From the NCBI GenBank assembly GCA_907163375.1, contig CAJQUW010007290.1, forward strand, positions 62,001 through 126,000: a stretch of DNA of 64,000 bases, read 5' to 3'. The stretch comes from Prostheceraeus crozeri (taxonomy: Eukaryota > Platyhelminthes > Polycladida > Euryleptidae). Below, piece after piece: positions 30,045 to 63,228 of the stretch. A model generated the notes under the pieces. That model did not search any database. It saw only the letters and a program-made list of their open reading frames with translations, and had not been told where the DNA came from. Each line of letters starts with the position of its first letter. Positions within the stretch are counted from its first letter, which is position 1. Made by a program: the position numbers and the translations under genes.

Positions 30045-30379
30045 TACTCGTTGCTCTGATTATTGTATTCTCTCTGTGTGTGGTCTGAAAATTTCTATTG
30101 TAACCTAATACCGCTCAGCATTAGGAAATAAAGTCGATTATTATTATTATTGTGGGGTTCATCAGGGATCTCAAATTGTTAATTTCAAGAACATGCCTGT
30201 CTGGTCGCACGTAGGTGCATCTTGAACCTATTGCACTAGACTTTCGAAAAGAGATAAGCAAACATCAATTGTATTTATTTATTCTCTATACTACAACGGA
30301 AACAGAAGCTGTGATCACATCGCCATCTAATATTGAAATTTATACCATTTCAGTAGTAAGTAAAACTCCACTTCTGGAT

Positions 30380-30675
30380 AGCGCAAGATGGCCGCCATCG
30401 CTGACGCCCCCCCCTCTGGAACGGCAGAGTGTCGTGGTCGGCCGCCGTGGTGCTTTGAGTCTGACGTCCCCCCCCCTCTGGAACGGCAGAGTGTCGTGGT
30501 GTGCCGGCCACGTGCGTCCGTCAGGTTCGCTGACGTCCCCCCCCTCTGGCCGACCGTCGTATAGCGCGCGGTGATGTGGTGTCTAGGTTGGCGTGGTGTG
30601 CCGGCCAGGTTGGCGTGGTGTGACGGCCAGGTTGGCGTGGTGTGCCGGCCAGGTTGGGAGGGTGGTCTGTCGTAG
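30380..30675. repeat. GC-rich minisatellite
   Basis: Two kinds of tandem repetition occur. First come units containing GACG(T/C)CCCCCCCCTCTGG followed by AACGGCAGAGTGTCGTGGT. Then, at about 30590-30660, there are three 22-bp copies of AGGTTGGCGTGGTGTGCCGG plus CC. The GC content is far above the flanks. Reading frames across it are repeat translations, not genes. Confidence 0.8.
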
Positions 30676-32105
30676 CTCACCTGAAAAAATCCTAAGTGTC
30701 AGAGTGGCTTTGTATGGGTAAAATTTTGAAAATTTTCCAAAGTGTGGCATTTCGACCTGGGACCTTCACCAAAACATTTTTCATCAAATTTCACTGACCT
30801 CCCCCCCCCGACAGCAATCTTCTAACTTTGGTTCTAGTGAACGGATTTTGTCTTACAGCTACTCGTTTGAAAGAGGAGAAAAAACTGCTCGACGCCATTT
30901 TTTGCCGCGAGTCAATCGGACCAGCCGTTCAAAAGTTAGAGCGGTTACAAGATTTTAGGTCGGATCTCGCTCACCTGAAAAAATCCTAAGTGTCAGAGTG
31001 ACTTTGTATGGGTAAAATTTTGAAAATTTTCCAAAGTGTGGAATTTCGACCTGGGACCGTCACCAAAACATTTTTCATCAAATTTCACTGACCTCCCCCC
31101 CCCCCTCTGGACAGCTAGCTTCGATCTTGGCTTCTAGTGGACGGATTTTGTCGTGCAATAGCTCGTTTGAAAGCTAAGAGTGAGACAAATTCAGTGAAAG
31201 AAACGGCTTGTTCATATCTGTCTTCGTTCAAAAGTTAGAGCTGTTACAAGATTTTAGGTCGGAGCTCACCTGAAAAAATCCTAAGTGTCAGAGTGGCTTT
31301 GTATGGGTAAAATTTTGAAAATTTTCCAAAGTGTGGCATTTCGACCTGGGACCTTCACCAAAACATTTTTCATCAAATTTCACTGACCTCCCCCCCCCGA
31401 CAGCAATCTTCTAACTTTGGTTCTAGTGAACGGATTTTGTCTTACAGCTACTCGTTTGAAAGAGGAGAAAAAACTGCTCGACGCCATTTTTTGCCGCGAG
31501 TCAATCGGACCAGCCGTTCAAAAGTTAGAGCGGTTACAAGATTTTAGGTCGGATCTCGCTCACCTGAAAAAATCCTAAGTGTCAGAGTGACTTTGTATGG
31601 GTAAAATTTTGAAAATTTTCCAAAGTGTGGAATTTCGACCTGGGACCGTCACCAAAACATTTTTCATCAAATTTCACTGACCTCCCCCCCTCTGGACAGC
31701 TAGCTTCGATCTTGGCTTCTAGTGGACGGATTTTGTCGTGCAATAGCTCGTTTGAAAGCTAAGAGTGAGACAAATTCACTGAAAGAAACGGCTTGTTCAT
31801 ATCTGTCTTCGTTCAAAAGTTAGAGCTGTTACAAGATTTTAGGTCGGAGCTCACCTGAAAAAATCCTAAGTGTCAGAGTGGCTTTGTATGGGTAAAATTT
31901 TGAAAATTTTCCAAAGTGTGGAATTTCGACCTGGGACCGTCACCAAAACATTTTTCATCAAATTTCTCTGAACGAGGGGGGGAGGGGGGGTCCGTGAAAT
32001 TTGATGAAAAATGTTTTGGTAAAGGTCCCACGTCGAAATTCGGAAGTTTTAAATTTTTCAAAATTTTCACCACACTGGAGCTGTCACACTTAGGAATTTT
32101 TTCAC
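30676..32105 (+). repeat. Five ~293-bp tandem units of two alternating types
   Basis: Unit starts (CTCACCTGAAAAAATCCTAA) lie at 30676, 30970, 31265, 31559 and 31850, a spacing of 291-295 bp. Every unit shares a first half with AAAATTTTGAAAATTTTCC, a TTTCGACCTGGGACC stretch and a poly-C run. The second halves alternate between type A (units 1 and 3) and type B (units 2 and 4), so the true repeat is an A-B dimer of about 589 bp. The fifth unit is cut short by an inverted copy. Confidence 0.9.
31854..32105. repeat. Fold-back formed by an inverted copy of the 293-bp unit
   Basis: About 31854-31970 is followed, after a short G-rich centre (GAGGGGGGGAGGGGGGG), by its imperfect reverse complement to about 32105. 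For example, CCAAAACATTTTTCATCAAA pairs with TTTGATGAAAAATGTTTTGG, and CCTAAGTG near the start pairs with CACTTAGG near the end. The structure ends about 170 bp before the first promoter of the virus-like element. Confidence 0.85.
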
Positions 32106-32276
32106 TTGTGGCATGTTACATGGACATGTGCTGACGGACCAACTTCTCGTGGTCATATGAGAATGGTTCAGGTGTCATATGATAGAGAATGATGAGACGA
32201 ATCGTTTGCAACAAACCACATGTCGCTACGATGAATACTTTCGGAGATAGAGTCATTTTAAGTTTTCTTCCGAGCA

Positions 32277-32284
32277 TATATAAA
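32277..32284 (+). promoter_or_regulatory. TATA box of the first element gene
   Basis: TATATAAA lies 31 bp upstream of a plausible initiator (TCACTTC, A at 32308). A strong splice donor (ACGAG/GTAAGC, GT at 32326-32327) follows within 20 bp. This suggests a very short untranslated leader exon spliced to the acceptor TTATCTTACAG ending at 33228, just before the first gene's ATG. Positions are seen; use of the promoter is inferred. Confidence 0.6.
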
Positions 32285-32570
32285 CCCCCGACAACGTAAG
32301 TCTGATCACTTCATCGAAAGACGAGGTAAGCGACGCTCGTCGCTCTGAGCTCCCGATATCGGGTGTTTCAAAGGACTCTATCTTTTGAAGTAGGCAAGCT
32401 ATCTTCTTACTTCAAAGTTTGTATGATAGAGTTTGATAGTGTCTTTACTACTGATAAAATTTTTTAAAAGTAGTATGAGTAGTAAAATGCGGAATTTTTT
32501 AAAAATTCTTAATTTTCAGTTTTTTCAAAGTTTTAACATGTAGACTAAGGTTTTCAAGTATGCTGAGTTT

Positions 32571-32823
32571 AAATCTGCTATCAGATTTGAAATTTAACTA
32601 AGTCTAAGGCAGCTTTGACGGGTTAGATCCCAGCTACTGATCACTACCTTTGACTCGGCGTTCCTGTTACCACTTCGGAGCAGTGACAATGATGTCTTCA
32701 GCTGTAAAGAGCGGGTATCGGGGAAGATCTCTCACTTCCCTAGTGATCAGTACAAGGCCTTCGGGCTGTCGACGGGATCGAGTGCCACTCATTACACTCA
32801 AATCTATCATTCCTCACTAAGTG
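32571..32823 (+). repeat. 253-bp direct duplication, copy 1
   Basis: It starts AAATCTGCTATCAGATTTGA and is repeated almost identically at 32916-33168, offset 345 bp. Both copies lie inside the predicted leader intron. The spacer between them contains short TGTTGAATG tandem repeats. Confidence 0.9.
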
Positions 32824-32915
32824 TTGATATTATGTTGAATGTTGACTAAGTTGAATGTTGAATGTTGAATAAGTGTTGAATGATAACATTATGTTTTAGG
32901 CCGTATGCTACATTC

Positions 32916-33168
32916 AAATCTGCTATCAGATTTGAAATTTAACTCAGTCTAAGGCAGCTTTGAGGGGTTAGATCCCAGCTACTGATCACTACCTTTGACT
33001 CGGCGTTCCTGTTACCACTTCGGGGCAGTGACAATGATGTCTTCAGCTGTAAAGAGCGGGTATCGGGGAAGATCTCTCACTTCCCTAGTGATCAGTACAA
33101 GGCCTTCGGGCTGTCGACGGGATCGAGTGCCACTCACTACACTCAAATCTATCATTCCTCACAAAGTG
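32916..33168 (+). repeat. 253-bp direct duplication, copy 2
   Basis: Near-identical to 32571-32823; the few differences include GACGGGTTAG against GAGGGGTTAG. It ends about 60 bp upstream of the predicted splice acceptor. It could be a duplicated enhancer or unequal-recombination product; no function is visible. Confidence 0.9.
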
Positions 33169-33248
33169 TTATGCTTTAATCTGTATACTACATGATTCCA
33201 AACTTATACAAATTTCATTATCTTACAGTTAACGATAAAATCGCAGCC

Positions 33249-34484
33249 ATGGTCAACAATGACAAAAATAAAAAGTTCCACATTAAAATGTGTGTATGCG
33301 GTCGAATTAACCGCCGAGACGGTCTCAAGGACCACATCAAGAAGGCAGGGGCCGACCACATGGTTATCCTGAGTAGGGTTGCCTGTGTGAAGTGCAGGGT
33401 GCTGTTGGTTGTTGGGCAGGAGGCCGAGTTTTATTTGAGGCATGGTGAGTGCACAGGAGGGTTGGTGACCGATTTGAGATTTGTGGAGTTGATGAATGCT
33501 GAGAAGGAGCGAATGTTGGGGAAAGAGGCCAAGAATGTTGTTGAGAATGCTAGTGGGAATGCTAGTGGGAATGTTGTTGGGAATGCTAGTGGGAATGTTG
33601 TTGAGAATGCTAGTGGGAATGCTGTGGAGAATGAGGTAGAGAATGCTGTGGCCGGTTTGGAGGCTGACAAGTGGCGGAAGAGAGTGTTTGAGAGTGATGA
33701 GGATGATGTGGATTTGGATAGGGAGCGAGTGAGGAAGCGTGTGAGGAAGTTGAGCTCTTCGGCGTCGGAGGTATCCGATATTGTCATTACCGACCCCCCG
33801 CATAGCTCATCTTCCCCAATAGTGAAGGGTGGTGGGGTACGGAAGCAGTCGGCGCGGTGGGATGAGGACATGGAAAAGAAGCATGTGTCGCAGCAAGCGG
33901 TACATGCTTTGTTGGTTGATCGGTACGAAAGTTTGAAGAAGGTGAATGAGAGAACGTTGAGTGAGTTGAGTGAGCTGAAAATGAAGGAGATGAAATGTAA
34001 GGAGGTGGCAGATGAGAATATCCGTATGAGGCGTGTTGTGAAAGAGTTGAAGGAGAATGTGCGAGTGTTGGAAGACAAGAATGATGAGCGAGAGAAGAGG
34101 ACGAGTGCTGCAGAGAGAAGAATGGGAGAGGCAGAGTCGAAGTATGAGGAGTTGATGAAGGAGATGAGTGTATTGAGAGCGAGGAATGCTGAGTTGGAGA
34201 GGAGTGTGAGTAGGCAGGGTGATGAGAGAGAGTCGTTTGCGAAGTTGGAGCGCATGAGGAATGAGTGGAATCGTGTGAATGAGGACAGAATGTTTGAGTT
34301 CCACATCCCTATTCGGGATAACCATCTGGACGGTCAAGTCCTCGTCAACCAAAGCCTAGACGAAAGTATAATCTGCCATAATGGTCATCCGAGTAAGAAG
34401 TGCTTACATGCCACACTAAGAATGCGTGGCCATTTACAAAAATTTTCAGTCAGGAAGCCCGCGAGACTGCCTAAGGATGACTAA
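33249..34484 (+). CDS. Zinc-finger and coiled-coil protein of the virus-like element
   Basis: A 411-aa frame. I chose the ATG at 33249 because it sits in a strong context (GCCATGG) 21 bp after a splice acceptor; an upstream in-frame ATG at 33192 would lie in the predicted intron. Residues 15-68 hold two Cys/His sets (CVCG with H29 and H37; CVKC with H65 and C68) resembling zinc-binding modules. Residues about 95-140 are low-complexity NASGN/VVEN repeats. About 215-350 is a highly charged Glu/Lys heptad-like region predicted as coiled coil. The C-terminal ~60 residues are again mixed. The sense strand is strikingly G- and purine-rich, which creates long antisense frames. A 60-bp intron follows the stop. 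Function unknown; DNA binding or scaffolding is a guess. Confidence 0.75.
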   Translation: MVNNDKNKKFHIKMCVCGRINRRDGLKDHIKKAGADHMVILSRVACVKCRVLLVVGQEAEFYLRHGECTGGLVTDLRFVELMNAEKERMLGKEAKNVVENASGNASGNVVGNASGNVVENASGNAVENEVENAVAGLEADKWRKRVFESDEDDVDLDRERVRKRVRKLSSSASEVSDIVITDPPHSSSSPIVKGGGVRKQSARWDEDMEKKHVSQQAVHALLVDRYESLKKVNERTLSELSELKMKEMKCKEVADENIRMRRVVKELKENVRVLEDKNDEREKRTSAAERRMGEAESKYEELMKEMSVLRARNAELERSVSRQGDERESFAKLERMRNEWNRVNEDRMFEFHIPIRDNHLDGQVLVNQSLDESIICHNGHPSKKCLHATLRMRGHLQKFSVRKPARLPKDD

Positions 34485-34488
34485 CTTG

Positions 34489-34548
34489 GTAAGTGAAAAG
34501 CAAATAAGATAGTATATCCTATTCTAATACATATCATTTTCATTGCAG
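34489..34548 (+). other. Probable 60-bp intron downstream of the coiled-coil gene
   Basis: The donor TTG/GTAAGTG (GT at 34489) and the acceptor ATTTTCATTGCAG (AG at 34547-34548) have a CTAAT branch-like sequence between them. The intron begins 4 bp after the stop codon, so splicing would not alter the protein but would link this transcript to the short ORFs beyond. Confidence 0.5.
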
Positions 34549-34594
34549 ATCTTTGCCTGCCTTCACCACCCCATCAATTCACTCCCGAGAACGA

Positions 34595-34718
34595 GGCTCT
34601 CTTAAGGGCCACCTAGGGGCAAGACATGATAGAACCTCCTCGCGGTTTGCCCTGGGCAGTCTTCGAACTGGCGAATACTATCACTAAGTTGAATCTGCTA
34701 TCAGTCAACTTGAACGTT
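34595..34718 (+). repeat. 124-bp direct duplication, copy 1
   Basis: From GCTCTCTTAAGGGCCACC to CAACTTGAACGTT; about 97% identical to 35123-35245. It carries a short open frame conserved between the copies. Confidence 0.9.
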
Positions 34719-34751
34719 ATGCAGTCGATTGCTATCCCTGAAGCATTCTGA
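34626..34751 (+). CDS. Short ORF A (41 aa), duplicated
   Basis: ATG at 34626, stop TGA at 34749. The first 31 codons (MIEPPRGLPWAVF and a Leu/Asn-rich helix-like stretch) recur in ORF B at 35141. The few differences include one synonymous change, so this may be a real small peptide or an exon. In this copy the codon three positions upstream of the ATG is TAG, where copy B has an in-frame ATG. Unknown function; no known domain. Confidence 0.3.
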   Translation: MIEPPRGLPWAVFELANTITKLNLLSVNLNVMQSIAIPEAF

Positions 34752-34783
34752 TTCGCTGTTGAGCAATTCATTGTTGAAAACCC

Positions 34784-34790
34784 TATATAA
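34784..34790 (+). promoter_or_regulatory. TATA box ahead of the small acidic ORF
   Basis: CCCTATATAAGCC with a plausible start site about 30 bp downstream (CACTTCTCATTC) and an ATG at 34832. The layout matches the promoter at 32277. Confidence 0.5.
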
Positions 34791-34831
34791 GCCAGAAGAT
34801 TGTAGCACTTCTCATTCAATTTGAAGTCACG

Positions 34832-35038
34832 ATGGAAGCGACATCTGCCGACAACATTCCCGTCTTCATCGATGAAGACAACGCTATTCCCTAGTTCGTC
34901 ATCCTCGACGAGTGGGATGAAGAGGATGATAAGAAGGGGAAGATCGAGAAGATTGTTTTGGACGGATGGGGTGTGGACTCCAAATACCACTCGCATCCGA
35001 AAGGTGCCAGATGCACCAGTACGACCTCGGCGGTATAG
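34832..35038 (+). pseudogene. Small acidic ORF with an in-frame TAG
   Basis: The ATG at 34832 lies about 45 bp after a TATA box. After 20 codons the frame meets TAG at 34892-34894. It then continues open for 47 codons with the same acidic character (VILDEWDEEDDKKG, IVLDGWGV) to TAG at 35036. In the neighbouring frame a plausible C-terminus (RPRRYRVYDNLTVIPIDYSS) runs to 35087, so a frameshift or splice may also be involved. No family recognised. Broken copy, stop readthrough or an unrecognised intron are alternatives. Confidence 0.35.
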
Positions 35039-35122
35039 GGTCTATGACAACCTAACCGTCATACCCATTGACTATTCCAGCCAATAGTCAACTTAAATTC
35101 ACACCCCAAGAACGAACCATCG

Positions 35123-35245
35123 GCTCTCTTAAGGGCCACCATGGGGCAAGACATGATAGAACCTCCACGCGGTTTGCCCTGGGCAGTCTTCGGACTGGCG
35201 AATACTATCATTAAGTTGAATCTGCTATCAGTCAACTTGAACGTT
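35123..35245 (+). repeat. 124-bp direct duplication, copy 2
   Basis: About 97% identical to 34595-34718, offset 527-528 bp. Confidence 0.9.
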
Positions 35246-35278
35246 GCAAATGAAGTTCGGTGTAATACTTCCTTTTGA
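35141..35278 (+). CDS. Short ORF B (45 aa), duplicated
   Basis: The ATG sits in an ideal vertebrate-style context (GCCACCATGG); stop TGA at 35276. Residues 5-35 match ORF A with two or three substitutions; the last ten residues differ. Predicted as a short amphipathic or hydrophobic peptide. Unknown function. Confidence 0.3.
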   Translation: MGQDMIEPPRGLPWAVFGLANTIIKLNLLSVNLNVANEVRCNTSF

Positions 35279-35841
35279 CGGGCGTTCCTGTAAAGGGCGG
35301 CGGTGAAACCCGTAGCTATGTATACCGCAAGGGACATTCGGCAATGGTCAATCTTGTTAAACCTCTCTGCGTCATGTTTGCAAGTGATTGCCTCTGTCTC
35401 AACGTAGTATGCATTCGCGTCAGGGCGACATTTAGCCGACTGTCGAAGGTTGCCTAAAACTTTCCATTGCATACGTTATGAGAACCATGAGTTCTACCTG
35501 TCTCTATCAATGAGACGAATTGATGAATGGAATGAAATGGGAGGAAACTCACGCGCAACACGCAACATAACACACTTCTCTCTTCCGTAGTCTAACAAGC
35601 TCTTTACACATGGATCGCAGTCGATTGCTATCCCTGTATCAGAAGTGTAAGCTATCTTAATTTTATTTGACACTATTTCATCTATCATCATCATCGCCCA
35701 TATGAAATGTTTCAAGATTTACAAGTTAGACTAACCGTGCTACTATTTCCAAATGAAAAAGTATACATGGTTAAATCATCCACTGAAGCCCCGTTCAAGT
35801 AAGTCAGTATGAAAGCAAAGATAATACGAAATAAAAATTTA

Positions 35842-36237
35842 TTATGGCATGTATTTCAAAAGGTCTTCATCGTCAATATCGTCCCAGAGTCTGGCTTCAC
35901 ATAGATAACAAAAACAATTCACTTGCTTTAATCGTTCTTCCACTGCGAGCCTCACTTTGTCAATATACTCCCACTCCGCCATAGTTCGTGGCTGGGAGTT
36001 AGGGGTGTACCACTCCCATAATTGGTGGAGGAACTTGGTGCTGGTGATCTCCATCACATCGTCAGTATCGTACTGGAGATACTTCCACCTCACGCTTGTT
36101 AAGTCGGGACACTCCTTCTCACATACACTCTCTTCGTTGTCCACTGGTAATAACACCTTCTCTACCTTCGTTGGAGCGTTTGGTGTTGAGGATGGAGAAG
36201 AGAATTTTGTGTTTGGTGTTGTCGGAGGGCTTGTCAT
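35842..36237 (-). CDS. Unknown 131-aa protein of the virus-like element
   Basis: ATG at 36237, stop TAA near 35842. The first 30 residues are Ser/Thr/Pro-rich and look disordered. The middle has WKYLQYDTDDVMEI and a Trp-rich LHQLWEWYTPNS segment. The C-terminus carries CFCYLC, a possible half zinc site, and an acidic end (WDDIDDEDLLKYMP). An AATAAA on the minus strand overlaps the stop (plus-strand TTTATT at 35838-35843), so the 3' UTR is nearly absent. It diverges from the polymerase gene, and the intergenic region at 36240-36490 holds TATA-like sites for both directions. I recognise no family. Composition and signals look genuine. Confidence 0.6.
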   Translation of the reverse strand: MTSPPTTPNTKFSSPSSTPNAPTKVEKVLLPVDNEESVCEKECPDLTSVRWKYLQYDTDDVMEITSTKFLHQLWEWYTPNSQPRTMAEWEYIDKVRLAVEERLKQVNCFCYLCEARLWDDIDDEDLLKYMP

Positions 36238-36334
36238 GTTGACTGTGAATAATAACTTTGAAATGTTTTCTAATTCTTAAGTATCAACAAGCAACCAATC
36301 AGAATGAACAGCCAATGAATGATGAATATGAAAG

Positions 36335-36388
36335 TATATATGTAAAGTGACATTCGTGTCATTTCACTCTGTCTTTGTGACATATAAG
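36335..36388. promoter_or_regulatory. Divergent promoter region between the 131-aa gene and the polymerase gene
   Basis: TATATA at 36335-36340 is suitably placed for the leftward gene (about 100 bp before its ATG). TATAAG at 36383-36388 is suitably placed for the rightward transcript, whose ATG-bearing exon ends at 36497. No further elements were recognised. Confidence 0.4.
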
Positions 36389-36494
36389 TGAAGTGTTCTC
36401 TGACGAATTCTATATTTGAGGCGTACAAGTAAACTGCTCTCTCGTGAAGTCTCTATCTTGTTGAAGTATCAACCTTAAACTCGATTTCGTTGAA

Positions 36495-37643
36495 ATGGTA
36501 AGTTGAAAATTTCTTCACTCATCTCCGTCAAACGTGTGGTTAATAGCATCTTCCTCAAGTTCAGGCATCTACTTCATCACCAACGCCCTCCCTTCTCGAG
36601 GAAAGTTTAGAGTCGTTGAGTCAAAGTAGGTTGTAACAATACACTGAGACTTGAACAGAGATGATAGAATGATTTCTCTTTCAGGTGATGTGAGTTCCAG
36701 CTCAGGACTCTCGCGACAAGGCAACGAGTGGGAATGTGCCGACTGCGGACATATGTTTACAAGGAAGCACAGTCTCCTTCGACACATCAAACAACGTGTG
36801 TGTCAACGCAAAGCGGCGTCAATCTCCGGAGGTGAAGTTGATTCTGACGATGACATCTCCTTTCCTTGCGATTTGTGCCCTCTTTCTTTTGATAGTCACT
36901 TTCAGCGATCTTCGCACAGACTTCAACACACGCATGCAAATGATCACTACACCAACGGTACCTCTACCATCTCCCTCATTAATGTTTCACATAATAATTT
37001 AGTACGCGACTACTGCATGGAGTCCAATACTCAAATAGTAGATTTTCCTGAGTGGCTCCTTCAAAATTCTAACATTATCGAAGCGCTCTTCAACAATTTA
37101 GACAATTTTAGAATGAAGGCGCTCATCTACCTTAAACTAAAATATATTAAGATAGATTTTCAAACGGGTCAAGTGACGGAGAGAATACAGTTTCATGTTC
37201 CTTCCTCTTCCGCAACCGAAGTTGTAGACTGCGAGTCTTGGCTAAATTTTCACATTCAATGTTTAAAATCAAATGTAGATAAATTCAATCAACGCGACAG
37301 CGCTCTCATTTTTGATGGTGTGGAATCAGCCATATTCAAAATTTCACTATTAGAAAGTCATGCAGCTCGAGGTACATTTAAACTACCAAAAACGTTGTAT
37401 AATAATAAGAAAGCTGTCATCAATGTCGATTGTAAATCACAGTGTTTCAAATATGCAGTCCTATCCATCCTTCACTATAATGATATCAACGCGAATCGAA
37501 ATCATACCTATAGCTATAGACAGTGGGAGGATGAACTAGACTTTGAAGGTTGTGATAGTAACAACATGAAAATCAAAGATGTAGAAACGTTCGAAAAACA
37601 TAATAAGATTAAAATTGTCGTTCACGTGTGGGAGAAGGGTTGA
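36495..37643 (+). CDS. C2H2 zinc-finger N-terminal part of the DNA polymerase gene (spliced)
   Basis: The continuous frame is 36651-37643 (330 aa), but splice signals suggest a different start. The ATG at 36495-36497 is followed at once by GTAAGT. An acceptor ends at 36564. A small Ser-rich exon (36565-36625) ends before GTAGGT, and an acceptor ends at 36684 (TCTCTTTCAG). Phases fit throughout. In 330-aa numbering, residues 29-51 (C29, C32, H45) and 73-93 (C73, C76, H89, H93) are C2H2-type fingers. From about residue 253 the protein has KKAVINVD..CFKYAVLS..H, a block I associate with the region just before the polymerase proper in arthropod and cnidarian protein-primed PolB genes. It stops at TGA (37641) while homology continues in another frame at 37628, so the two are probably one gene broken by a single-base shift. 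Confidence 0.65.
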
Positions 37644-40471
37644 AGGGTGCCCGCTATAATTCACGTTCAACTTGTTATGAACGTGTAGTCAACCTCTTAT
37701 TAGTAAAACAAGATGATAGCGAGGAATGGCACTACTGTGGTATTCCCAAAATCTCGCGCTTGTACACTCACTTGGGGCACTCTAAAAGAGGTGAACATTT
37801 TGTATGCGACCGCTGCATCCGCACCTTTTGGAGTAAAGATAAATTTGAAACTCACTATGAATGGTGCAAGCGAGGTAAATTACAAATGGAACGCATGCCC
37901 AAAGATAAAATATTTTCACATAGGGATAATGGTGACGAATTAAGTCCCCTGCGTGTCATTTACGCAGACATAGAATGCTACATTGATGATATCATCCACA
38001 AGCCAGCAGCCATATCCTGCTATGAAGTATGGCATGACCACTTTAGGAATAGACAAAACAAAATGCATACTTGGCAAGGTGAAGATTGTATTTCAAAATT
38101 TCTAGAATTTCTCGATAAAGCTGCTAAATTTCAACAATCATATGATTCCCAATTGCAGCGTAAGTCACTACATATGTCAGATGAAGACAAACAAAAATTT
38201 GAAAGTTGCACATCCTGTCCTAAATGTCATAAAACGTTTGATGACGATAAAATTAAGAAAGTGCGTGATCATGATCACATCACTGGTAAATTTAGAAACG
38301 CACTCTGCTCCAAATGTAACTTTTCACTTAGGTTGAGACGTCGTGTACTACCCGTCATTTTTCATAACTTTAAGGGCTATGACAGTCATATGCTCATAAA
38401 AGGAGGGTTGAGCCAGATGAAATCGTGGCAGTTCAATGTTATAGCACAAACGAGAGAAAAATTCATGGCAATGACAGCAAAAGTACCAGTAGATAAAACT
38501 AAAGAAAATAAGACAGTCTTCTTCGAAATAAAAATTTTAGATTCATTTCAATTCATGTCAGCGTCACTAGCTTCTCTCGTTCGTAATCTCAAGTTTCTTC
38601 CCCATAGTCAAACTTTGAAGAAACACTATCCAAACTTAACGGATGAAATAATCACTCGCAAAGGAGTCTTTCCTTATGCGTATTTTAGCTCAATGTCTAA
38701 ACTAAATGAAACAACCCTTCCTTCCATTGACAAATTCAAAAACGATTTGACGGGTGAATATTGTCCAGTAGAGGACTATGAACATGCTCAAGAGGCATGG
38801 TTAAAATTTGATTGTAAAACGTTTGGCGATTATATGATCGCTTACTTAGAATTAGATGTCATTTTGCTGGCTGATGTCTTTCAGGAATTTCGACGAGTGG
38901 CATTAGAAGAAGACAAATTAGATTCTGTCCACTTTGTCAGTCTACCAGCCATGTCCTTTAAATCAGCCTTTAAAATGACTGGTGAGACCATTCATCTCTT
39001 ACAAGACCCGGAGATGTATAATATATTTGAGCGCGGAATACGCGGTGGTCTCACATTTGTAAATAAACATCATATAAAATCTGAAACAGTAGGTGATGAT
39101 CATATCCACCTAAAGTACTATGACCAAAATAATTTATATGGCAGTTCACTGTCTAAACCACTACCTCATTCCGAGTTTAGTTGGTTAAATCAAGATGAGC
39201 TTGAGTATTACTCCAACCCTTCAAACATACTGAAGATTCCAGATGAAGGTGATTGGGGATATTATTTTGAAGTGGATTTGATTTATCCAAATAGCATTAA
39301 AAATAAAACTGCTGATTTCCCACTCGCACCTGAATCTGGTGAAGTGACTGAAGATATGTTTTCACCATTCATGTCACAATTTCATAATAACTTAACAGAG
39401 TGTGGACAGCCAAGGTATAAACCATGCCGCAAACTTTTACTCACCCAATATGATAAGAAAAATTATCTCGTACACTTCTGCATATTAAAATTCTATTTAG
39501 AAATGGGCATGCTTCTAAAGTCAGTTCACCGCATTATCAAATTTAGACAGAAAGCCTTCCTCAAACCCTACATAGATAGTAACAGTCAAAAACGTGCACT
39601 CGCCCAAAATAATTTTGAAAAGGATTTTTATAAATATAAGAATAACAGTCTATTCGGAAAGACCATGGAGGATGTTAGAAAACGTATGAATTACAAACTA
39701 GTCGTTGATGAACAAAAATATCACAAATTGACCTCATCACCTCTTTTCATTGATAGAGACATCATCGATGAGGATCTTGTAGGTGTTAAAATGATTAAAT
39801 CAGAAGTTGAGTTGTGCAAACCCATCTATATTGGGCAAGCCGTTTTAGATTATTCCAAGCTTGAAATGTATCAACTCTTCTACAAAATATTAAAACCATG
39901 CCCTCTCGTAAAAGAGGTTCGCTTGCTGGGTGGTGATACAGATAGTTTCTTTTTAGGAATTACCACTCAAAAAGATTTAAATTTTAATGAAGTAGGCAAG
40001 TCATTAGAAAAATATTTCGACACATCTAACTACAATCCCACTCATCCACTCTATTCCATACAGAATAAAGCCAAACTTGGTTGTTTTAAGGATGAAACAG
40101 CAGGAAAGGAAATAGATGAAATGATTCTCCTCCGTCCTAAAATGTATTCCATGAAATTAAAAGAATGTGCAGATAGTATTAAGCGTGCTAAAGGTATATC
40201 AAAATCCATTGTTCATAAAATGAAACATCGCTCCTATAAGAAGGCCTATAAAAATAAAACTATAACGTTTGTCAATATGACAATCTTAAAATCTCAAGTT
40301 CATACTGTGAAAACGTACACGTTCAAGAAACGAGCACTTTCAGCATGGGAGGATAAGAGGTGTTGGATAGGACATAACACATCTCTTCCACATGGACATC
40401 CTGACACAAACATACCTCCACCCAAAAGAATAAAACTCACGCTACCACATTCAGGAGATGTATTGACATAA
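37628..40471 (+). CDS. Protein-primed family B DNA polymerase
   Basis: The 947-codon frame opens at a GTG only because of the frameshift above, so this is not a natural start. It synthesises DNA, in related elements from a protein primer. Visible motifs: zinc-like C60/C63..H76/C80; Exo I YADIEC (D114, E116); Exo II HNFKGYDSH (D252); Exo III YLELDVILLADVF (D410); Pol A YDQNNLYG (D499); Pol B KNNSLFGKT (K671-T679); Pol C GGDTDSFF (D770, D772); and a thumb-region RPKMYSMK. All expected catalytic acidic residues are present. Between Exo I and II lies CPKC..RDHDHITGKFR..CSKCN (198-231), an endonuclease VII-like zinc/HNH module. The length fits polinton/adintovirus-type PolB. A poly(A) signal follows at 40630. 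Confidence 0.93.
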   Translation: MGEGLKGARYNSRSTCYERVVNLLLVKQDDSEEWHYCGIPKISRLYTHLGHSKRGEHFVCDRCIRTFWSKDKFETHYEWCKRGKLQMERMPKDKIFSHRDNGDELSPLRVIYADIECYIDDIIHKPAAISCYEVWHDHFRNRQNKMHTWQGEDCISKFLEFLDKAAKFQQSYDSQLQRKSLHMSDEDKQKFESCTSCPKCHKTFDDDKIKKVRDHDHITGKFRNALCSKCNFSLRLRRRVLPVIFHNFKGYDSHMLIKGGLSQMKSWQFNVIAQTREKFMAMTAKVPVDKTKENKTVFFEIKILDSFQFMSASLASLVRNLKFLPHSQTLKKHYPNLTDEIITRKGVFPYAYFSSMSKLNETTLPSIDKFKNDLTGEYCPVEDYEHAQEAWLKFDCKTFGDYMIAYLELDVILLADVFQEFRRVALEEDKLDSVHFVSLPAMSFKSAFKMTGETIHLLQDPEMYNIFERGIRGGLTFVNKHHIKSETVGDDHIHLKYYDQNNLYGSSLSKPLPHSEFSWLNQDELEYYSNPSNILKIPDEGDWGYYFEVDLIYPNSIKNKTADFPLAPESGEVTEDMFSPFMSQFHNNLTECGQPRYKPCRKLLLTQYDKKNYLVHFCILKFYLEMGMLLKSVHRIIKFRQKAFLKPYIDSNSQKRALAQNNFEKDFYKYKNNSLFGKTMEDVRKRMNYKLVVDEQKYHKLTSSPLFIDRDIIDEDLVGVKMIKSEVELCKPIYIGQAVLDYSKLEMYQLFYKILKPCPLVKEVRLLGGDTDSFFLGITTQKDLNFNEVGKSLEKYFDTSNYNPTHPLYSIQNKAKLGCFKDETAGKEIDEMILLRPKMYSMKLKECADSIKRAKGISKSIVHKMKHRSYKKAYKNKTITFVNMTILKSQVHTVKTYTFKKRALSAWEDKRCWIGHNTSLPHGHPDTNIPPPKRIKLTLPHSGDVLT

Positions 40472-40621
40472 TCAACTTTAACTCAGTATTTTGATGTTGC
40501 TTTTTGTAGATATACATGGTTGTTTTATGTATCGCATGAGATCGTTTCTTCCTTGTGAATATATGCCTACAGTCAGCCCATTCCCCCTATATCTGTGAAA
40601 AGACTTTTTCATATACATATT

Positions 40622-40635
40622 TTTATTTCAATAAA
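40622..40635. terminator. Overlapping bidirectional poly(A) signals
   Basis: Plus-strand AATAAA at 40630-40635 serves the polymerase gene. TTTATT at 40622-40627 is AATAAA on the minus strand and serves the convergent gene ending at 40651. The two signals lie within 14 bp, a compact virus-like arrangement. Confidence 0.7.
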
Positions 40636-40650
40636 CATATCACAATGACT

Positions 40651-42169
40651 TCACTTTGTTTTCCGAAACACTAAAGTTACGAGGGATTTAGTATCTTTCA
40701 CATGGATGCACTCTTGTAAACCATTGGTAATTTTGATAGTAATAGAGGGTATAGTTTGTTTGACGACGGGATGATAGAAAATAGATTCAAACATCTTCTC
40801 GACTATTCCATATGAAGCGTCTTTATCATGAATGAAATCACGTAAAATGTATTCTTTTTTCTCACCAACAGAAATAGGTAAAATCAAATCACTTTGAATG
40901 TAAAGGTGCTGTTCATGTTTATCAAGTGTCATTGGTGTTTCTATACCAATCGTATGCGCAGCAGCAAACACAGTTTGTAGCATTGAAAAACCAAAGAGTT
41001 TTTTCAAATTTTACTCAATTGACATTGAATGTCATCGCCCAGTTTCAGAACAACGCGTTGATTTTCAATTGAAAACGAAATGTGGTGTGTCTTTACATCA
41101 TATTTACTTTTCATCACATGTTTCAACTTCTGTTGTATATAAGGATTTACTACATGAATGAAGCTTTCAACTGTATGATATAGACGCGGCATTATATTGA
41201 TAGCAACTTTACATTCTTGATAAGACTGGTAAATTTTCTTGATGCGATCACCATAGATGTCCACCCACCATTCATCATTAACTGAATCAGCTTTAGTGTG
41301 ATATTCATGAGAACCATACACCACACCGCTTCCAATAATAGGTGTATAATGTCTTATAAAATGACGCAAGGTTGGAGAGAAATAAACTGTAAGCTTGTCA
41401 TTATATTTCTGAATAACCAACTTATCCTTGTCCGCCATAATTTTCTCTCCATACTTTTTACCCACAGTCTCATTCCATCGTTTTATTAACTCAATAAGTG
41501 ATAAAGGTTGAACACCACGCTGTTTCAAAATGATGCGTTCTTCACATTCTACAACATCTTCATCAAATATTTTAAATTTATAATGAAATTTGTTGATTCG
41601 ATTTGAATAAACTTTTTTAACATTTGCAGTAGCAATTGACGTTAGATGTAGTCCATGCCCAAAACCGAGATGTGGATAGAATTCATTATCAACCTCAGTG
41701 TAAGACCTTTAGTAAAAGAATGAAAGCGAAGGAACTGTCTCCCATTCCAATGATAGATAGTAAACTCATAAACTTTCTGATCCTCATTCTTCATGATGGA
41801 AGTATTGCCACTATTGAATGCCTTAATAATTTTTTCATTCCCAAATGGACCATAATAATCTGATTTTATCTGAATCCATTCATAGTTCTACTTTCCATCT
41901 GGCGCTAAATTGTATGGAAACTGGAATGTATTATTCAATGTTATTCCATCATGGATGCGAGGAGTCAATATCATTTCTTCCACATCATTCACATTCTGAA
42001 TATTGCTATCATAGCAAATGCTGGAAACACCTACTTCCCATTCACCTTCTAGATGTAGTGAGCGATTTAATTCTACTCGAAAGGCTGATGGTTTGTTATT
42101 AGGAAATTTATTCATAGAAGCATTAGTGGGTAAGTAAATTAAAAACGAATCTCTATTTTCACTTTCCAT
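40651..42169 (-). pseudogene. 'GEWEVG' family protein, copy A (broken)
   Basis: Start ATG at 42169. Domain 1 has FLIYLPTNAS..FPNN..F and LEGEWEVG. It meets an in-frame TAG at 41888-41890 and stays open to 41642. The reading then shifts frame near 41.70 kb into a segment with LGFGHG. Further on is domain 2 (41528-41004) with WWVDIYGDRIKK, MPRLYHTVESFIHVVN and an LFGF end, and a second shift falls in a T/A run at 41004-41010. Domain 3 (41007-40651) has HLYIQSDLILP..VG and VTLVFRK. The same three domains in the same order make up copy B. I recall such proteins, unnamed, beside PolB in arthropod and cnidarian genomes. A structural (capsid-like) role is a guess. Indels in homopolymers could be sequencing errors; the TAG is harder to dismiss. 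Confidence 0.6.
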
Positions 42170-42208
42170 ATTATTCACATTGGAAAAACATATTAGCATA
42201 CTTTTGCA

Positions 42209-43612
42209 TTAACTCTTCATTCGGAAATGGAGTGTGATACTTGTTACAGCATCTTTATGAAAAGTAATCAACGCACCAGGATCGTCATCAATTGCAATAT
42301 CAATTTGTGGGATGTAGTTTGATTTCAGCTTTGTATAATGCACTTTCTTGAAAGTATGCTCAGATAAAATACTGCAGCTTTTTGGCTGGTATGGTATCAT
42401 TGTTAGCAATGGAGCTTCAACATCTCCCACACGTACATCTTCACCAATATTGGAATATATCTGAAAATAGTTGATACGACGCGATAGTGACATGTCTGCG
42501 CTAGCTGTGGCTACAGTACCACTTTAAAAGATATTTTGATCAAAACCCAAATTGTCCATTAGAGTTTTATCCATAATTAGTTCAATATCTTTCCCACTTA
42601 TAGTGACAGACAAAGCACCTTCTTTTTCAGAAAATGAAATATGTTGGTCATTAATCACTTCATTCAAATAATCTACAACCAATTTAACTGAAGTAATAAT
42701 GCGAGGCATCAACACTCTTGTTTCATGTAATACACCACCTAAAGGCTCTATACGCTTTCTGTATAAAGATACGGTCCATTCTGTATCAAATTGATTTGAC
42801 CTTTCACATGGCAAATGTTGCATATCAAATTTTCCATGAACAGCTGCAGAACGATGGCGTAAGAACTGATGAAAATCTTTTGAACAAACTAATACTAGAT
42901 CATCATCATTTAATTTACTTATTGCAATATGATTAGATGATTTGATATAAGTCAATGTTGCCACTTGTTTACCATCAACTCGAAGGAGATAATTAAATTT
43001 CTTCAATAATGTTTCAGGAGTCATGCTTGTCTTTCTTGGCTTAATCACAATCTTCTTCACCAACGTCTTCTCATTTTTTGGAATAAGATCTACATAATAA
43101 GCTTCTTCTCGATATATTTACTGTTTATGACCACCTGGGTGGTAATTAGCGTTACAGTTATCATAGCTTGTCAAGGTGCTGGTGAGGTAACCTAAATCAT
43201 TTCTTAAACTGGAACTCAAAGCAACATTCCAATCTTTATCAACTACATGATGTACATAATTGTGATCACCATTGTGCGGAGTAAATTGGACAATGTGTTT
43301 ACACTCTTTATTCAGGAAATCATATACGAATTTCTGACATGATGCAAGATCTTTCTTCGGCCATTGTGGAATGTACACTCGACAGCCCTTTTCACATTGG
43401 TAAGCAGCTGTGCGTCTCATATTAATAGTCATCACCTCATGATCAAAAGTATAGACACAGTTACTGTGAACAAGTTGTGTGAACCCTACTTCCCACTCTC
43501 CATTCAGCTGTTGTATGTTATCAATGGGAGTAGAAAAGATAGCGGCTCGATTACTAGCAAATCTATTTGTTGCTGCATTTCTAAGCAAAATATGGTAAAA
43601 CGACATTTTCAT
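42209..43612 (-). pseudogene. 'GEWEVG' family protein, copy B (two in-frame TAA)
   Basis: One continuous 468-codon frame runs from the ATG at 43612 (MKMSFYHILL) to TAA at 42209. It is interrupted by TAA at 43118-43120 and TAA at 42524-42526, with no frameshift. Domain 1 (164 aa) has NAATNRFASN, LNGEWEVGFTQL and RNDLGYL. Domain 2 (about 197 aa) has FDTEWTVSLYRKR, MPRIITSVKLVVDYLN and LMDNLGF. Domain 3 (94 aa, own ATG at 42493) has YFQIYSN, VGDVEAPLL, IDIAIDDDPGALITFHKD and ITLHFR. Domain order parallels copy A, its 40-bp neighbour, so they are tandem paralogues. The pieces may be separate proteins, but domain 2 lacks an ATG next to its start (the first is inside, at TSMTPE). That favours a broken single gene. 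Confidence 0.6.
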
Positions 43613-43650
43613 ATTCTATTGATCTATATATTACCAATTTGCATAACATC

Positions 43651-44046
43651 ATGAAGACTTGGATTTTGGATTCTCAACAATACATCAAAGTTGATCGCAA
43701 TGGAAACGTTCATTTCAAAAATTCTCATGGAAATACATCGAGAGGAATTACATTGACATGGCGGCAATTTTTTAATCTCAATGACATCATGAGAGATTTG
43801 GAATATTTTGAAACGCTAAAATTCATCTCTTTGGGTAATCAAGCTTGGCTTCAACATTACAGAAATGAAATTCAAATCTGTCATTCTGATTCCTCAATCT
43901 ATTTTTCATTTCGCAAATACAATTGGGAAAATATAAAAGATGGATACATCGCTCCATTATGTCATTTATTCGTCGAGAGTTCATCGCTTTGCTATGCAAA
44001 TCTTAATCAGACACCACCTTCAACACAATGTCCCGCTCCTTCATGA
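43651..44046 (+). CDS. PC4-like ssDNA-binding/coactivator protein, copy 1 (putative)
   Basis: 131 aa from the ATG at 43651 to TGA at 44044. The N-terminal half follows the pattern of the PC4 (positive cofactor 4) C-terminal domain: beta-rich WILDSQQYIKVD..GNVHFKN, then SRGITLTWRQFFNLNDIMRDLE, resembling the GIsLt..qw..L helix of PC4. The second half (LGNQAWLQH, YIAPLCHLFV) is shared with the damaged copy at 44043. PC4 binds single-stranded DNA and helps RNA polymerase II initiation; whether this protein does so is inference. It diverges from gene B with only 38 bp between their ATGs, containing TATATATT. The family assignment rests on pattern recall. Confidence 0.5.
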   Translation: MKTWILDSQQYIKVDRNGNVHFKNSHGNTSRGITLTWRQFFNLNDIMRDLEYFETLKFISLGNQAWLQHYRNEIQICHSDSSIYFSFRKYNWENIKDGYIAPLCHLFVESSSLCYANLNQTPPSTQCPAPS

Positions 44047-44368
44047 AGAGTTGGAGATTAGATTCCCTACAACATGTTGAGATTGATTATGATCAAAACG
44101 TTTATTTCAAAGACTATGCTGGAAATATGAGAAGAGAATTTGCTTTATCATATCGACATTTTCAGTGCCTAAATCATATCATGAAGGACTTGAAATAGTT
44201 CTATATGAAAAGACATTCACGCATAGGAAATCGCATATGGTTGCGACTTAAAAAGGCAACGAATACAAATCTATCATTTCCAACTTTCTATATGGTTCAC
44301 ATTTCATGAAGGTAGTTGGGAAAAGTAGAAAAGGAAGATACATCGCTCTATTTACTCATTTCTTCATC
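44043..44368 (+). pseudogene. PC4-like protein, copy 2 (TAG and frameshift)
   Basis: The ATG at 44043 (MKSWRLDS, aligned with MKTWILDS of copy 1) overlaps the TGA of copy 1. An alternative ATG is at 44028. Similarity to copy 1 runs through YFKDYAGNM, FALSYRHFQCLNHIMKDL. A TAG at 44196-44198 then replaces a codon that is TAT (Tyr) in copy 1. Beyond it the frame still matches (IGNRIWLRL) before a frame change leads into RYIALFTHFFI, the counterpart of copy 1's C-terminus. That segment runs without a stop into the TBP-like ORF. It is a tandem duplicate, damaged or recoded. Confidence 0.55.
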
Positions 44369-44915
44369 ATGAGACGTCATCGTTACACCATCGTCAACAT
44401 TCTCCGCCACATCAGACTCTATGCCAAAAACCATTTTGCAACATTACATCAACAAATTCCAAACAGCACGTATTATCCGGGTCGACCGCAAATGTTAGTG
44501 GTGAAGATGAGCAATTTACGGAACCTTCAACTCTTTTTCAAACGGGACGGTACAAATTCTCGGCGCCCTTTCTCATTCATCGGCGTGGTTAATGCGCTTA
44601 GAACTGCAGAAGCTACTACGTCGGATATGGAAGAGGGAGAAGTGTGTGATGTCGAATCTGACTGTGAACAATATGGTGATCTCTACTCAATTGAGTGAAA
44701 ATGTATCGTTTTCGAAGATTCATAGCAGCAGCTGCAGTTCGTGTTATGAGCCAGAACTTTTTCCTGCAAGTCTCATTAATCGCTGGAATCCTGTACATAT
44801 TGCAATCTTTCACAACAGTAAAGTTATCATTACTGGACTGAAATCAGAAGTGCAAGCAGATACAATCCTAGACCATTTAATCGAATATGTACATACCCAG
44901 CGGATTGCGAAATGA
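44369..44915 (+). pseudogene. TATA-binding-protein-like protein, one-base frame break
   Basis: Two overlapping frames together span both halves of a TBP core. Frame one (ATG 44369) matches the first repeat: an N-I start, then YYPGRPQMLVVKM and LRNLQLFF in place of TBP's Y-N-P-R-F..-I-R..P...L-I-F. Similarity then continues in the next frame from the T-run at 44534-44538 (SNGTVQILGALS, like the S-S-G-K..T-G-A segment). The second repeat follows, with VNNMVIS, CYEPELFP, LINRWNP, IAIFHNSKVIITG. YEPELFP and F..SGK..TG are hallmark TBP segments. A TBP core binds the TATA minor groove and recruits general factors. The length (about 180 codons) equals a TBP core without an N-terminal extension. The break may be a sequencing error in T5, a mutation or +1 recoding. 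Ends TGA at 44913. Confidence 0.72.
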
Positions 44916-44923
44916 AAACAATT

Positions 44924-44929
44924 TTTATT
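44924..44929 (-). terminator. Minus-strand poly(A) signal of the protease gene
   Basis: TTTATT on the plus strand reads AATAAA on the minus strand, about 40 bp past the protease stop at 44967. It lies in the 51-bp gap between the convergent TBP-like and protease ORFs. Confidence 0.55.
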
Positions 44930-44966
44930 CCAATATGATGATGTTATATTTCAAATCATTATAGAA

Positions 44967-45407
44967 CTAACAAATCATCTTTTCATTAGAAGATGGGTTA
45001 CATGAAAACTTTTGAATAACAGATTTAAATCGACGTACATGCAAACGTTTTAAGATGAAGTACAGTAGAAAAGCATCACACGTTGATGAAAGTGGATGTT
45101 GTAGTATGCGTTCATTTCGCTGATATTGACGCGTATGTTTTCTCAACCACTGCTGTGTTGGTATATTTGGAGGTTGAGCAAGAGAGTCAAATAGTTCACC
45201 ATGTCGGTCTTCTCCAATAAAGATCGCTTTCCAATGCTCACCGCCTAAATTCTGCGAATGAGTGTTTAGCACAATAAAGATGGGATAGTGATTTACTGCA
45301 GGTGGTAAGGTATCGAGCGAATAGACATTATCGAAAGCTTTCAACGTCGCTTCGTCTGCATTACGCTGTACTTTAGTTTTAATATCGTCATCAGTCAACT
45401 AACTCAT
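44967..45407 (-). CDS. Adenain-type cysteine protease
   Basis: The main frame is 45398-44967 (143 codons). Counting from its first codon, the catalytic set of the adenovirus protease family is in place: His55 in GGEHWKAIF, Asp71 in GELFDSLAQPP, Gln100 in ILQHPLSS and Cys107 in SSTCDAFLLYF. Gln-Cys spacing is seven, as in adenain. FDNVYSLDTLP near the N-terminus is also typical. In adenoviruses, polintons and adintoviruses this enzyme matures virion proteins. The frame begins at TTG. The nearest upstream ATG (45405-45407) is separated from it by AGT and an in-frame TAG (45399-45401). Either the TAG is a mutation, it is read through, or an upstream exon is spliced in (ATTCTTCAG-like acceptor near 45.42 kb). 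It ends in TAG. Confidence 0.82.
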
Positions 45408-45419
45408 TAACGATTATAC

Positions 45420-46200
45420 TGAAGAATCACGTCACGATACTTAGTTATTTTTATTCTAATGTTTTTATTCATATATATTATTTTATATTTCTACTTTGTG
45501 CTATTTGTTTCTTTAGATCTTATCTTATATTTTATACTTCTATATACAATATTGTGTCTTATCTATTTATATTATATTTATATTCATATATCTCTAGATT
45601 TTTCTTTATTTTTATAATTTTCTTGATTTTTTATTCTTTTATTATTTTTTTATTATATCTATTTTTTTATAATTTCATCTTATCTAACCTACACTTTATT
45701 TCTTTTAAAGTCTAGTTTTCTTTATTCAACTACTTTTTTTTCATTTATCTTTATCTTTTTTTCTTTTTTATTATTATAGCTCGTTCTTCCCTTTTTTATC
45801 TTTTATATTTTTTTATTATCGTTTATATTTATTCCTTACATCTATTGAGTTTTATCATTCATTGAATATTTTATAATTTATAATATTTACTTTTTTCTAT
45901 TTTTACTTTTATTTGTTATTATTTTTTTTAATTAAATTTTTATTAATTGTATTTTTATCCATTATTTTTTTTTTTATCTCCCTATTTTATTTTATCTATT
46001 TTTAATTCTACTATTTATCAATCTAATTTATAAATTAGAACCATTTCTTTTATATATAACTGCTATATTTCTATTTTAAGGTTAATTTTTATAATAAGTT
46101 TATATACATTATAACATTTATTTTTCCTATCATCTATATTCTTTTTTTTTTATATATTTTTTTATTTATTTTTTATTATTTTTATTATTTATTATTATTA
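45420..46200. other. T-rich, nearly G-free low-complexity tract
   Basis: Long runs of TTTATT, TTTTTT and ATATA; almost no G on the plus strand. No gene. It starts where the virus-like element's last gene ends, so the element's right terminus is probably hidden or lost here. Confidence 0.8.
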
Positions 46201-47900: not shown

Positions 47901-47904
47901 ATCC

Positions 47905-62900: not shown

Positions 62901-63228
62901 AAAAATTTCGTGAGGTCTTGGTACTTGTGAATTCTAACTTAGGACAAATACGAGTAGGCCTATACGTGTTTAGTGGCCACCTGCAATTGTACATGGTGCT
63001 CAAGTTAAAAAAAAATCTTCGTGAGGTCTTGTTACTTGTGAATTCTAACTTAGGACAAATACGAGTAGGCCTATACGGGCTTAGTTGAAACCTGCAATGG
63101 TACATAGTGCTAAAGCTGAAAAAAAAATCTTCGCGAGGTCTTGGTTATTGTGAATTCTAACTTAGGACAAATACGAGTAGACCTATACGTATATATAGTG
63201 GCGACCTGCAATTGTACATAGTGCTTAA
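47905..63228. repeat. Satellite array, ~110-111-bp monomer, ~138 copies
   Basis: Conserved words per monomer: GTGCTTAAGTTC, AAATCTTCGTGAGG, TCTTGGTACTTGTGAATTC, GAGTAGGCCTATACG, CCTGCAATGGTACATAG. In the clean part, consecutive CTTAAGTTC words lie at 61671, 61781, 61891 and 62002 (110, 110, 111 bp). Two main variants differ before CCTGCAAT: GTGTTTAGTGGAAA with TGG, and GTATATAGTGGCCA with TTG. Marked variants recur at roughly 1.05-1.2 and 2.2-2.4 kb, indicating higher-order repeats of about 10 and 20 monomers. Because 111 is a multiple of three, both strands show long spurious frames with a 37-residue period. Left of about 58.6 kb most monomers are riddled with single-base indels. Confidence 0.95.

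What the first reader, a model, noticed from the sequence alone, without database searches (positions are those of the whole stretch)
32277..45407. Compact virus-like element encoding PolB, adenain protease, TBP-like and PC4-like proteins
About 13 kb of tightly packed genes on both strands, with protein-primed PolB and adenain-type protease. These are polinton/adintovirus hallmarks, but here they are combined with a TBP-like and two PC4-like proteins and a duplicated 'GEWEVG' protein. No integrase, packaging ATPase or canonical capsid gene is visible. A protein-primed element carrying its own TATA-recognition proteins beside TATA promoters would be a distinct lineage.
Basis: partly seen in the sequence, partly recalled or inferred. 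Interest (0 to 1): 0.9.

Follow-up and report, generated by a model that had tools for sequence, protein, structure and literature searches.

The report
Maverick transposon with its own TBP
This is the truncated left part of a virus-like jumping element (a Maverick/Polinton), very abundant in its host genome, that carries its own TATA-binding protein and may use it to switch on its own capsid genes.

Summary
The genes are real, but 'no integrase, packaging ATPase or capsid' is due to a truncated copy. Other copies in the same 2.05-Gb genome continue past window 45450 into a likely capsid gene, a chromodomain integrase and an A32-like ATPase. One copy measured end to end is 23.2 kb, with inverted (AGT)2-type ends; 8 of 8 copies have 6-bp target duplications. 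It is a Maverick. The genome holds 3,080 exact termini (control 0).

New here: six of 15 right-arm starts have ATGCAAA 29-46 nt upstream; no 7-mer did as well in 500 shuffles. Three left-arm TATA boxes are kept in 10 of 10 copies. Best model: the element's TBP reads TATGCAAA as a late promoter with host Pol II. Identity is near certain; mechanism is inferred.

The parts
30352..45450 (+). Truncated Maverick copy (left 15.1 kb of a ~23-kb element); PolB orientation taken as +
   Evidence: Left terminus exact at 30352/30353; match to all ten compared copies stops at 45450
30352..31971 (+). Left terminal inverted repeat region with a 294-bp tandem array (30669-31971, 4.4 copies)
   Evidence: in copy C5571 left and right ends match over 790 columns at 94.9% (25)
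32276..32287 (+). TATA-like box TATATAAA
   Evidence: Identical in 10 of 10 copies
33192..34484 (+). Coiled-coil-like ORF, 430 aa, function unknown
   Evidence: no Pfam family at its cut-off
34784..34791 (+). TATA-like box TATATAAG before a small ORF
   Evidence: TATATAA kept in 10 of 10 copies
36335..36342 (+). TATA-like box upstream of PolB
   Evidence: Found in 10 of 10 copies allowing two substitutions
36651..37643 (+). PolB, N-terminal piece with C2H2 zinc finger
   Evidence: PF00096 1.5e-5; one 1,273-codon frame in most other copies
37628..40471 (+). PolB, main piece with endonuclease VII insert
   Evidence: PF02945 7.1e-7; Exo I-III and motifs A-C in order
40651..42199 (-). Penton-like protein B (GEWEVG, paralogue), in pieces
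   Evidence: Pieces; intact 514-519 aa in other copies; aligned with penton A
42209..43612 (-). Penton-like protein A (GEWEVG), in pieces
   Evidence: Intact 476-aa frame in other copies; penton fold
43638..43644 (-). ATGCAAA motif upstream of penton A
42203..42209 (-). ATGCAAA motif upstream of penton B
43994..44000 (+). ATGCAAA motif upstream of the second paired small ORF
43639..44046 (+).
   Evidence: No family or PDB support; dN/dS 0.16 against another copy (75)
44306..44698 (+). TBP first-lobe piece (its 3' part is in another frame)
   Evidence: PF00352 0.064; dN/dS 0.22 (75)
44592..44915 (+). TBP second-lobe piece
   Evidence: PF00352 2.6e-10; dN/dS 0.33 (75)
44967..45398 (-). Adenain/Ulp1-type cysteine protease
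   Evidence: Homologue L010:4448-4915 PF02902 1.1e-3, PF00770 0.046

Best explanation
The finding is the left two thirds of a truncated Maverick/Polinton from a family that has recently reached a very high copy number in its host genome. The full element is a virus-like transposon: protein-primed PolB, chromodomain integrase leaving 6-bp duplications, protease, an A32-like ATPase, a likely major capsid protein and two penton-fold proteins (gene content and ends shown; packaging and virions inferred). It also carries a TBP. Proposed mechanism: left-arm genes (PolB and neighbours) use ordinary TATA boxes read by host TBP; the element's own TBP then binds a variant core element, TATGCAAA, some 30-45 nt upstream of several right-arm capsid and packaging genes, and recruits host TFIIB and RNA polymerase II through its conserved C-terminal stirrup, giving element-specific late transcription with very short leaders. 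Shown: TBP fold, its conservation and constraint, the motif and its position. Inferred: that this TBP binds this motif, TFIIB recruitment, and the early/late order.
For: Maverick; ends and duplications as reported for vertebrate Mavericks (PMC8097293, passages). TBP: 29, 32, 66, 69, 76, 96. Intact full frame in 39 of 46 copies, pN/pS 0.44; 150 of 150 scored matches stop-free (129, best-scoring only). Other three kinking Phe 22 of 22, stirrup Glu 21 and 22 of 22. Motif: ATGCAAA before 6 of 15 right-arm starts, -29 to -46; best 7-mer in 500 shuffles 4; kept in the window copy although that region differs by up to 19% per 200 bp. Precedent: KSHV ORF24 is a TBP mimic that reads TATTWAA at late promoters (PMC12529657, passages).
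Against: No binding or expression data. Nine of 15 starts lack the motif in gene orientation, among them the likely major capsid gene, protease and integrase. ATGCAAA is not clearly over-represented in the arm as a whole (near part 6 against 3.46 expected, 30 of 200 shuffles; far part 2 against 1.73, 105 of 200), and its near absence from the left arm is what chance gives. TATA boxes are not over-represented in the left arm either (4 against 2.66, 59 of 200). 6-mer and 8-mer versions of the test are close to the shuffle maxima (7 reached in 2 of 500; 4 in 1 of 500). The TBP gene's own TATAAAA is not kept in the window copy. ATGCAAAT is also the binding octamer of host POU factors (recalled). 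The motif was first seen by eye in the same sequences that were tested.
Confidence: 0.5

Rival explanations
1. The element is a Maverick with a TBP, but TATGCAAA is a host octamer site: host POU-domain factors and host TBP drive the right-arm genes, and the element TBP does something else, such as competing with host TBP to dampen host or antiviral transcription.
For: ATGCAAAT equals the POU octamer (recalled). One Phe of the DNA face is replaced by Pro in 21 of 21 (94), which could weaken DNA bending. The TBP stirrup is kept, enough to titrate TFIIB.
Against: The motif lies 29-46 nt before the ATG in gene orientation, the place of a core element rather than an upstream octamer. Three kinking Phe and both central Asn are kept (Phe 22 of 22; Asn 19 of 19 and 22 of 22).
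Confidence: 0.28
2. The TBP serves DNA replication or TIR recognition rather than transcription.
For: Conserved DNA-binding fold in an element with long, repeat-rich TIRs.
Against: No TATGCAAA in the left arm including its TIR; the TFIIB-facing stirrup is conserved.
Confidence: 0.07
3. The TBP is a captured passenger gene with no role for the element.
For: Polymorphism among copies shows only mild constraint (pN/pS 0.44 for all changes, 0.59 for changes shared by two or more copies).
Against: 21 relatives down to 28% identity keep TBP residues; dN/dS 0.22 and 0.33; 39 of 46 copies keep the full frame.
Confidence: 0.08
4. One reading: a compact protein-primed element that lacks integrase, packaging ATPase and capsid genes.
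For: True of the window copy taken alone.
Against: Ten other copies agree with the window only up to 45450 and continue beyond it; integrase, an ATPase-like protein, a likely capsid gene and the right terminus follow.
Confidence: 0.02

Closest known systems
Mavericks/Polintons (vertebrate Mavericks, PMC8097293; Polinton capsid genes, PMC4028283)
   Same: PolB, rve integrase, protease, ATPase-like gene, penton fold, TIRs with (AGT)2/(ACT)2 ends, 6-bp duplications, size within the 12.7-24.6 kb reported
   Different: Carries a TBP and two penton-like paralogues, with 294-bp repeats in its terminal region; I saw no report of a TBP in a Maverick
KSHV ORF24 and beta/gamma-herpesvirus late vTBPs (PMC12529657, passages)
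   Same: Viral TBP fold proposed here to read a non-canonical box before late genes with host Pol II
   Different: ORF24 keeps four required Phe and has extra domains and five partner proteins; the element TBP is ~180 aa with three of four Phe
Mirusvirus and nimavirus TBPs (PMC10132985, PMC10871703, passages)
   Same: Virus-encoded TBP (59% of mirusvirus genomes; wsv303)
   Different: Large DNA viruses, not Mavericks; sequences not compared here
Poxvirus VITF-3 (PMC12917281, search listing only)
   Different: Works with a viral RNA polymerase; far below cellular TBPs in structural match
Cellular TBPs (2z8u, 4wzs, 7o4i, 1cdw)
   Different: 18-27% identity in the structural alignments; separate long branch from the three cellular TBPs used; first lobe-1 Phe is Pro

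Membership tests
[quoted passage not shown]
   Exo I-III and motifs A-C in order; no profile match, so this rests on motifs
Maverick/Polinton | Retroviral-type (rve) integrase | tested here: met
   PF00665 1.3e-10 plus Chromo 6.4e-7 in L010
Maverick/Polinton | Adenovirus-type cysteine protease | tested here: met
   PF02902 1.1e-3 (under cut-off), PF00770 0.046
Maverick/Polinton | FtsK/A32-like packaging ATPase | tested here: inconclusive
   Walker A motif seen; Pox_A32 only 0.026 (29)
Maverick/Polinton | Double jelly-roll major capsid protein | tested here: inconclusive
   428-aa ORF in the expected place; no family or PDB match; fold not predicted
Maverick/Polinton | Penton (single jelly-roll minor capsid) protein | tested here: met
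Maverick/Polinton | Terminal inverted repeats with (AGT)2 or (AG)3 ends | tested here: met
   AGTAGTAAG ends; criterion from PMC8097293 passages
Maverick/Polinton | 6-bp target site duplication | tested here: met
   8 of 8 copies; in one (C7555) three extra bases AGT stand between duplication and terminus
Adintoviridae | Place in adintovirus polymerase and capsid phylogenies | not tested
   Defining paper not held; no PolB tree made
TATA-binding protein family | Two-lobed TBP fold and PF00352 profile | tested here: met
TATA-binding protein family | Four DNA-kinking phenylalanines | tested here: not met
   Three of four: the first lobe-1 position is Pro in 21 of 21, by alignment to 2z8u and 4wzs; fold membership stands, canonical DNA mode does not follow
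PC4/Sub1 | PC4 profile or fold | tested here: inconclusive
   No Pfam or NCBIfam match, no PC4 chain in the PDB sequence search; fold not predicted

The most novel reading that the evidence does not exclude
A lineage of Mavericks runs a private late-transcription system: an element-encoded TBP with a fixed change on its DNA face pairs with an element-specific core promoter, TATGCAAA, in front of capsid and packaging genes, using host TFIIB and Pol II while early genes stay on host TATA boxes. That would be a TBP/promoter pair in a transposon, reached independently of herpesviruses, in a family with about 1,500 copies bearing exact termini.
Probability: 0.4. Interest if true: 0.86.

Novelty: new variant of a known kind. 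Interest (0 to 1): 0.72.

Why it matters
Mavericks are widely seen as relatives of many eukaryotic DNA viruses, yet I know of little on how they express capsid genes from inside a host genome. A Maverick TBP with a candidate cognate promoter makes that testable with a binding or reporter assay. It offers a small (~180 aa) element TBP to compare with herpesvirus, mirusvirus and nimavirus TBPs, and its fixed Phe-to-Pro change poses a sharp question about how a TBP chooses and bends its box. The family is also very abundant (3,080 exact termini in 2.05 Gb), so its expression control bears on genome expansion.

Tried and rejected
Rejected: 'no integrase/ATPase/capsid' (truncation). Rejected: GEWEVG as unknown (penton fold). 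Not upheld: PC4-like (an adiponectin row in 91 is an 18-residue match).

Led nowhere: scans of viral contigs with PolB, the TBP alignment and the penton alignment found no relative. The likely capsid ORF matched no family or PDB chain. A penton search with the broken window piece found 3 proteins; the full-length query found 35. Polymorphism: first counts (pN/pS 0.99; 119: 0.79) were spoiled by out-of-register or frame-shifted copies; with only the 39 copies that have the 234-codon frame it is 0.44. dN/dS of two apparently diverged copies was discarded: their differences are frame-shifted ends. Of the seven copies without that frame in my stretches, at least one (C7604) is a cut made too short by me: one search lists it as complete. 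C10522 showed no TBP frame and broken frames generally. A sigma-70 scan is not relevant here. The host was not identified and its own TBP not obtained (130, 132, 134, 135, 137, 138, 140 not answered). The tree of 109 has only three cellular TBPs and its support label at the dividing branch is unclear after rerooting. PMC8502044 and PMC11131425 are not held. Absence of a row in the VIA-align lists is not used as evidence.
Full report
WHAT IS THERE. The window lies in a 2.05-Gb genome of 14,165 contigs. Searching it with the PolB ORF gave 48 scored copies (of 28,569 first-look candidates) at 99-100% identity; 43 of 48 have an unbroken frame of 1,273 codons or more (10, recounted in 143). The window copy and two others have the shorter 952-codon frame. 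I compared the flanks of ten other copies (17-20). Eight of them begin sharply, within the fetched stretch, with AGTAGTAAGTAAAACTCC or a close variant (20); in the window this is at 30352 (56). On the right, the window copy's match to all ten stops at exactly 45450 (18), while nine of the ten agree with each other to the end of the fetched stretches, about 3 kb further (20). In copy C5571 the right end is the reverse complement of the left (790 columns, 94.9%; 25) and the element spans 23,153 bp (143). In 8 of 8 copies the element is flanked by 6-bp duplications; in C7555 three extra bases stand between duplication and terminus (56).

COPY NUMBER AND AGE. The 27-nt terminus occurs 3,080 times exactly (1,584 forward, 1,496 reverse), against 0 for the reversed control. 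In the first 100 listed, 30 facing pairs lie 19.5-30.1 kb apart, median 23.5 kb; four other facing pairs lie outside that range. Whether the assembly counts some loci twice as haplotypes is unknown. Nine right halves are 98.1-99.5% identical to one another. The TBP query gave 150 scored matches of 11,886 candidates, all 150 free of stops and 99-100% identical, 68 of them identical to the query; these are the best-scoring ones, so this is no estimate of the intact fraction. In 46 of the 48 PolB copies I fetched the stretch where TBP should lie; 39 show the complete 234-codon frame, and at least one of the seven misses is a cut of mine (C7604; 129). Low divergence and high copy number point to a recent burst.

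THE PROMOTER MOTIF. Reading the bases before right-arm starts (82) I saw ATGCAAA, often as TATGCAAA, before penton A, penton B, the second paired small ORF, the 152-aa basic protein, the ATPase and the mu-like protein, beginning 29-46 nt before the ATG. Testing every 7-mer in the 70 nt before 15 starts, ATGCAAA reaches 6 of 15; the best 7-mer in each of 500 dinucleotide shuffles reached 4 in 37 and never 5. The 6-mer ATGCAA reaches 7 of 15 (reached in 2 of 500 shuffles) and the 8-mer TATGCAAA 4 of 15 (1 of 500). Two more ATGCAAA hits in the right arm lie within the protease and integrase coding regions. Nine starts lack it in gene orientation: TBP, protease, likely capsid, integrase, the first paired ORF (which has it reversed) and four unnamed ORFs, some of which may not be genes. 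The excess is positional: over the whole arm the motif is not clearly enriched, and its absence as TATGCAAA from the left arm and PolB is what chance gives. Three left-arm TATA boxes recur in 10 of 10 copies, the third with up to two substitutions; by count TATA boxes are not enriched there. The motif persists in the window copy, whose divergence reaches 19% per 200 bp in this region.

MECHANISM. I propose that host TBP serves the left-arm TATA boxes and the element TBP serves TATGCAAA in the right arm, as KSHV ORF24 serves TATTWAA late promoters (PMC12529657, passages). A host POU-domain factor reading the octamer is the main rival. Binding and timing are untested.

PRIOR WORK. Searches of the held library for Polinton with TATA-binding protein (33: 3 papers; two opened at passages in 36 and 37, the third seen as listing), Maverick with TBP terms (34: 1, listing), adintovirus with both (15: 0), polintovirus with TATA (128: 2; one opened in 37, the other in 139, where the TATA hits are an author name) and a wider set (127: 1,328, 12 listed) showed no TBP in a Maverick. 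TBPs are reported in mirusviruses (37), nimaviruses (83) and Cymbomonas elements of putative mirusvirus origin (36). Most subscription papers are not held, so novelty is provisional.

Noticed in passing
window 47904-63228: A 15-kb array of a ~111-bp satellite (135 copies) stands downstream of the truncated element.
   Followed up: no
window 46210-47560: A strongly strand-skewed, almost purely A and C low-complexity stretch lies between the element's broken end and the satellite.
   Followed up: no
window 43100-44900 against other copies: The window copy differs from another copy by up to 19% per 200 bp around TBP, the paired ORFs and the start of penton A, but by 1-4% in much of the rest: a mosaic, perhaps recombination between subfamilies.
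   Followed up: partly
L010:3555-4205 and L010:3880-4422, + strand: The frame of the second paired small ORF stays open over about 325 nt of the TBP gene in another frame, possible dual coding.
   Followed up: no
L029:6340-6708:+: A small right-arm protein has a weak match to the adenovirus mu core protein (Adeno_PX 0.0027), a candidate DNA-condensing virion protein.
   Followed up: no
window:36651-40471: The same 952-codon PolB frame occurs in 3 of 48 scored copies (window, C2059, C6036), so the broken form may itself have been copied or duplicated.
   Followed up: no
window 32558-33170: Two 268-nt direct repeats 97% alike stand before the coiled-coil ORF.
   Followed up: no
penton A model, residues ~90-375: The predicted penton seems to carry three similar alpha/beta modules between its jelly-roll strands, by eye from the secondary structure.
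   Followed up: no
P0004 (jgi, contig of 9,318 bases): A JGI metagenome protein is 99% identical to penton A, so DNA of the same or a very near host was probably sequenced there.
   Followed up: no
L029, beyond the right terminus (C5571): Reverse-transcriptase-like ORFs, by eye a LINE, adjoin one element copy.
   Followed up: no
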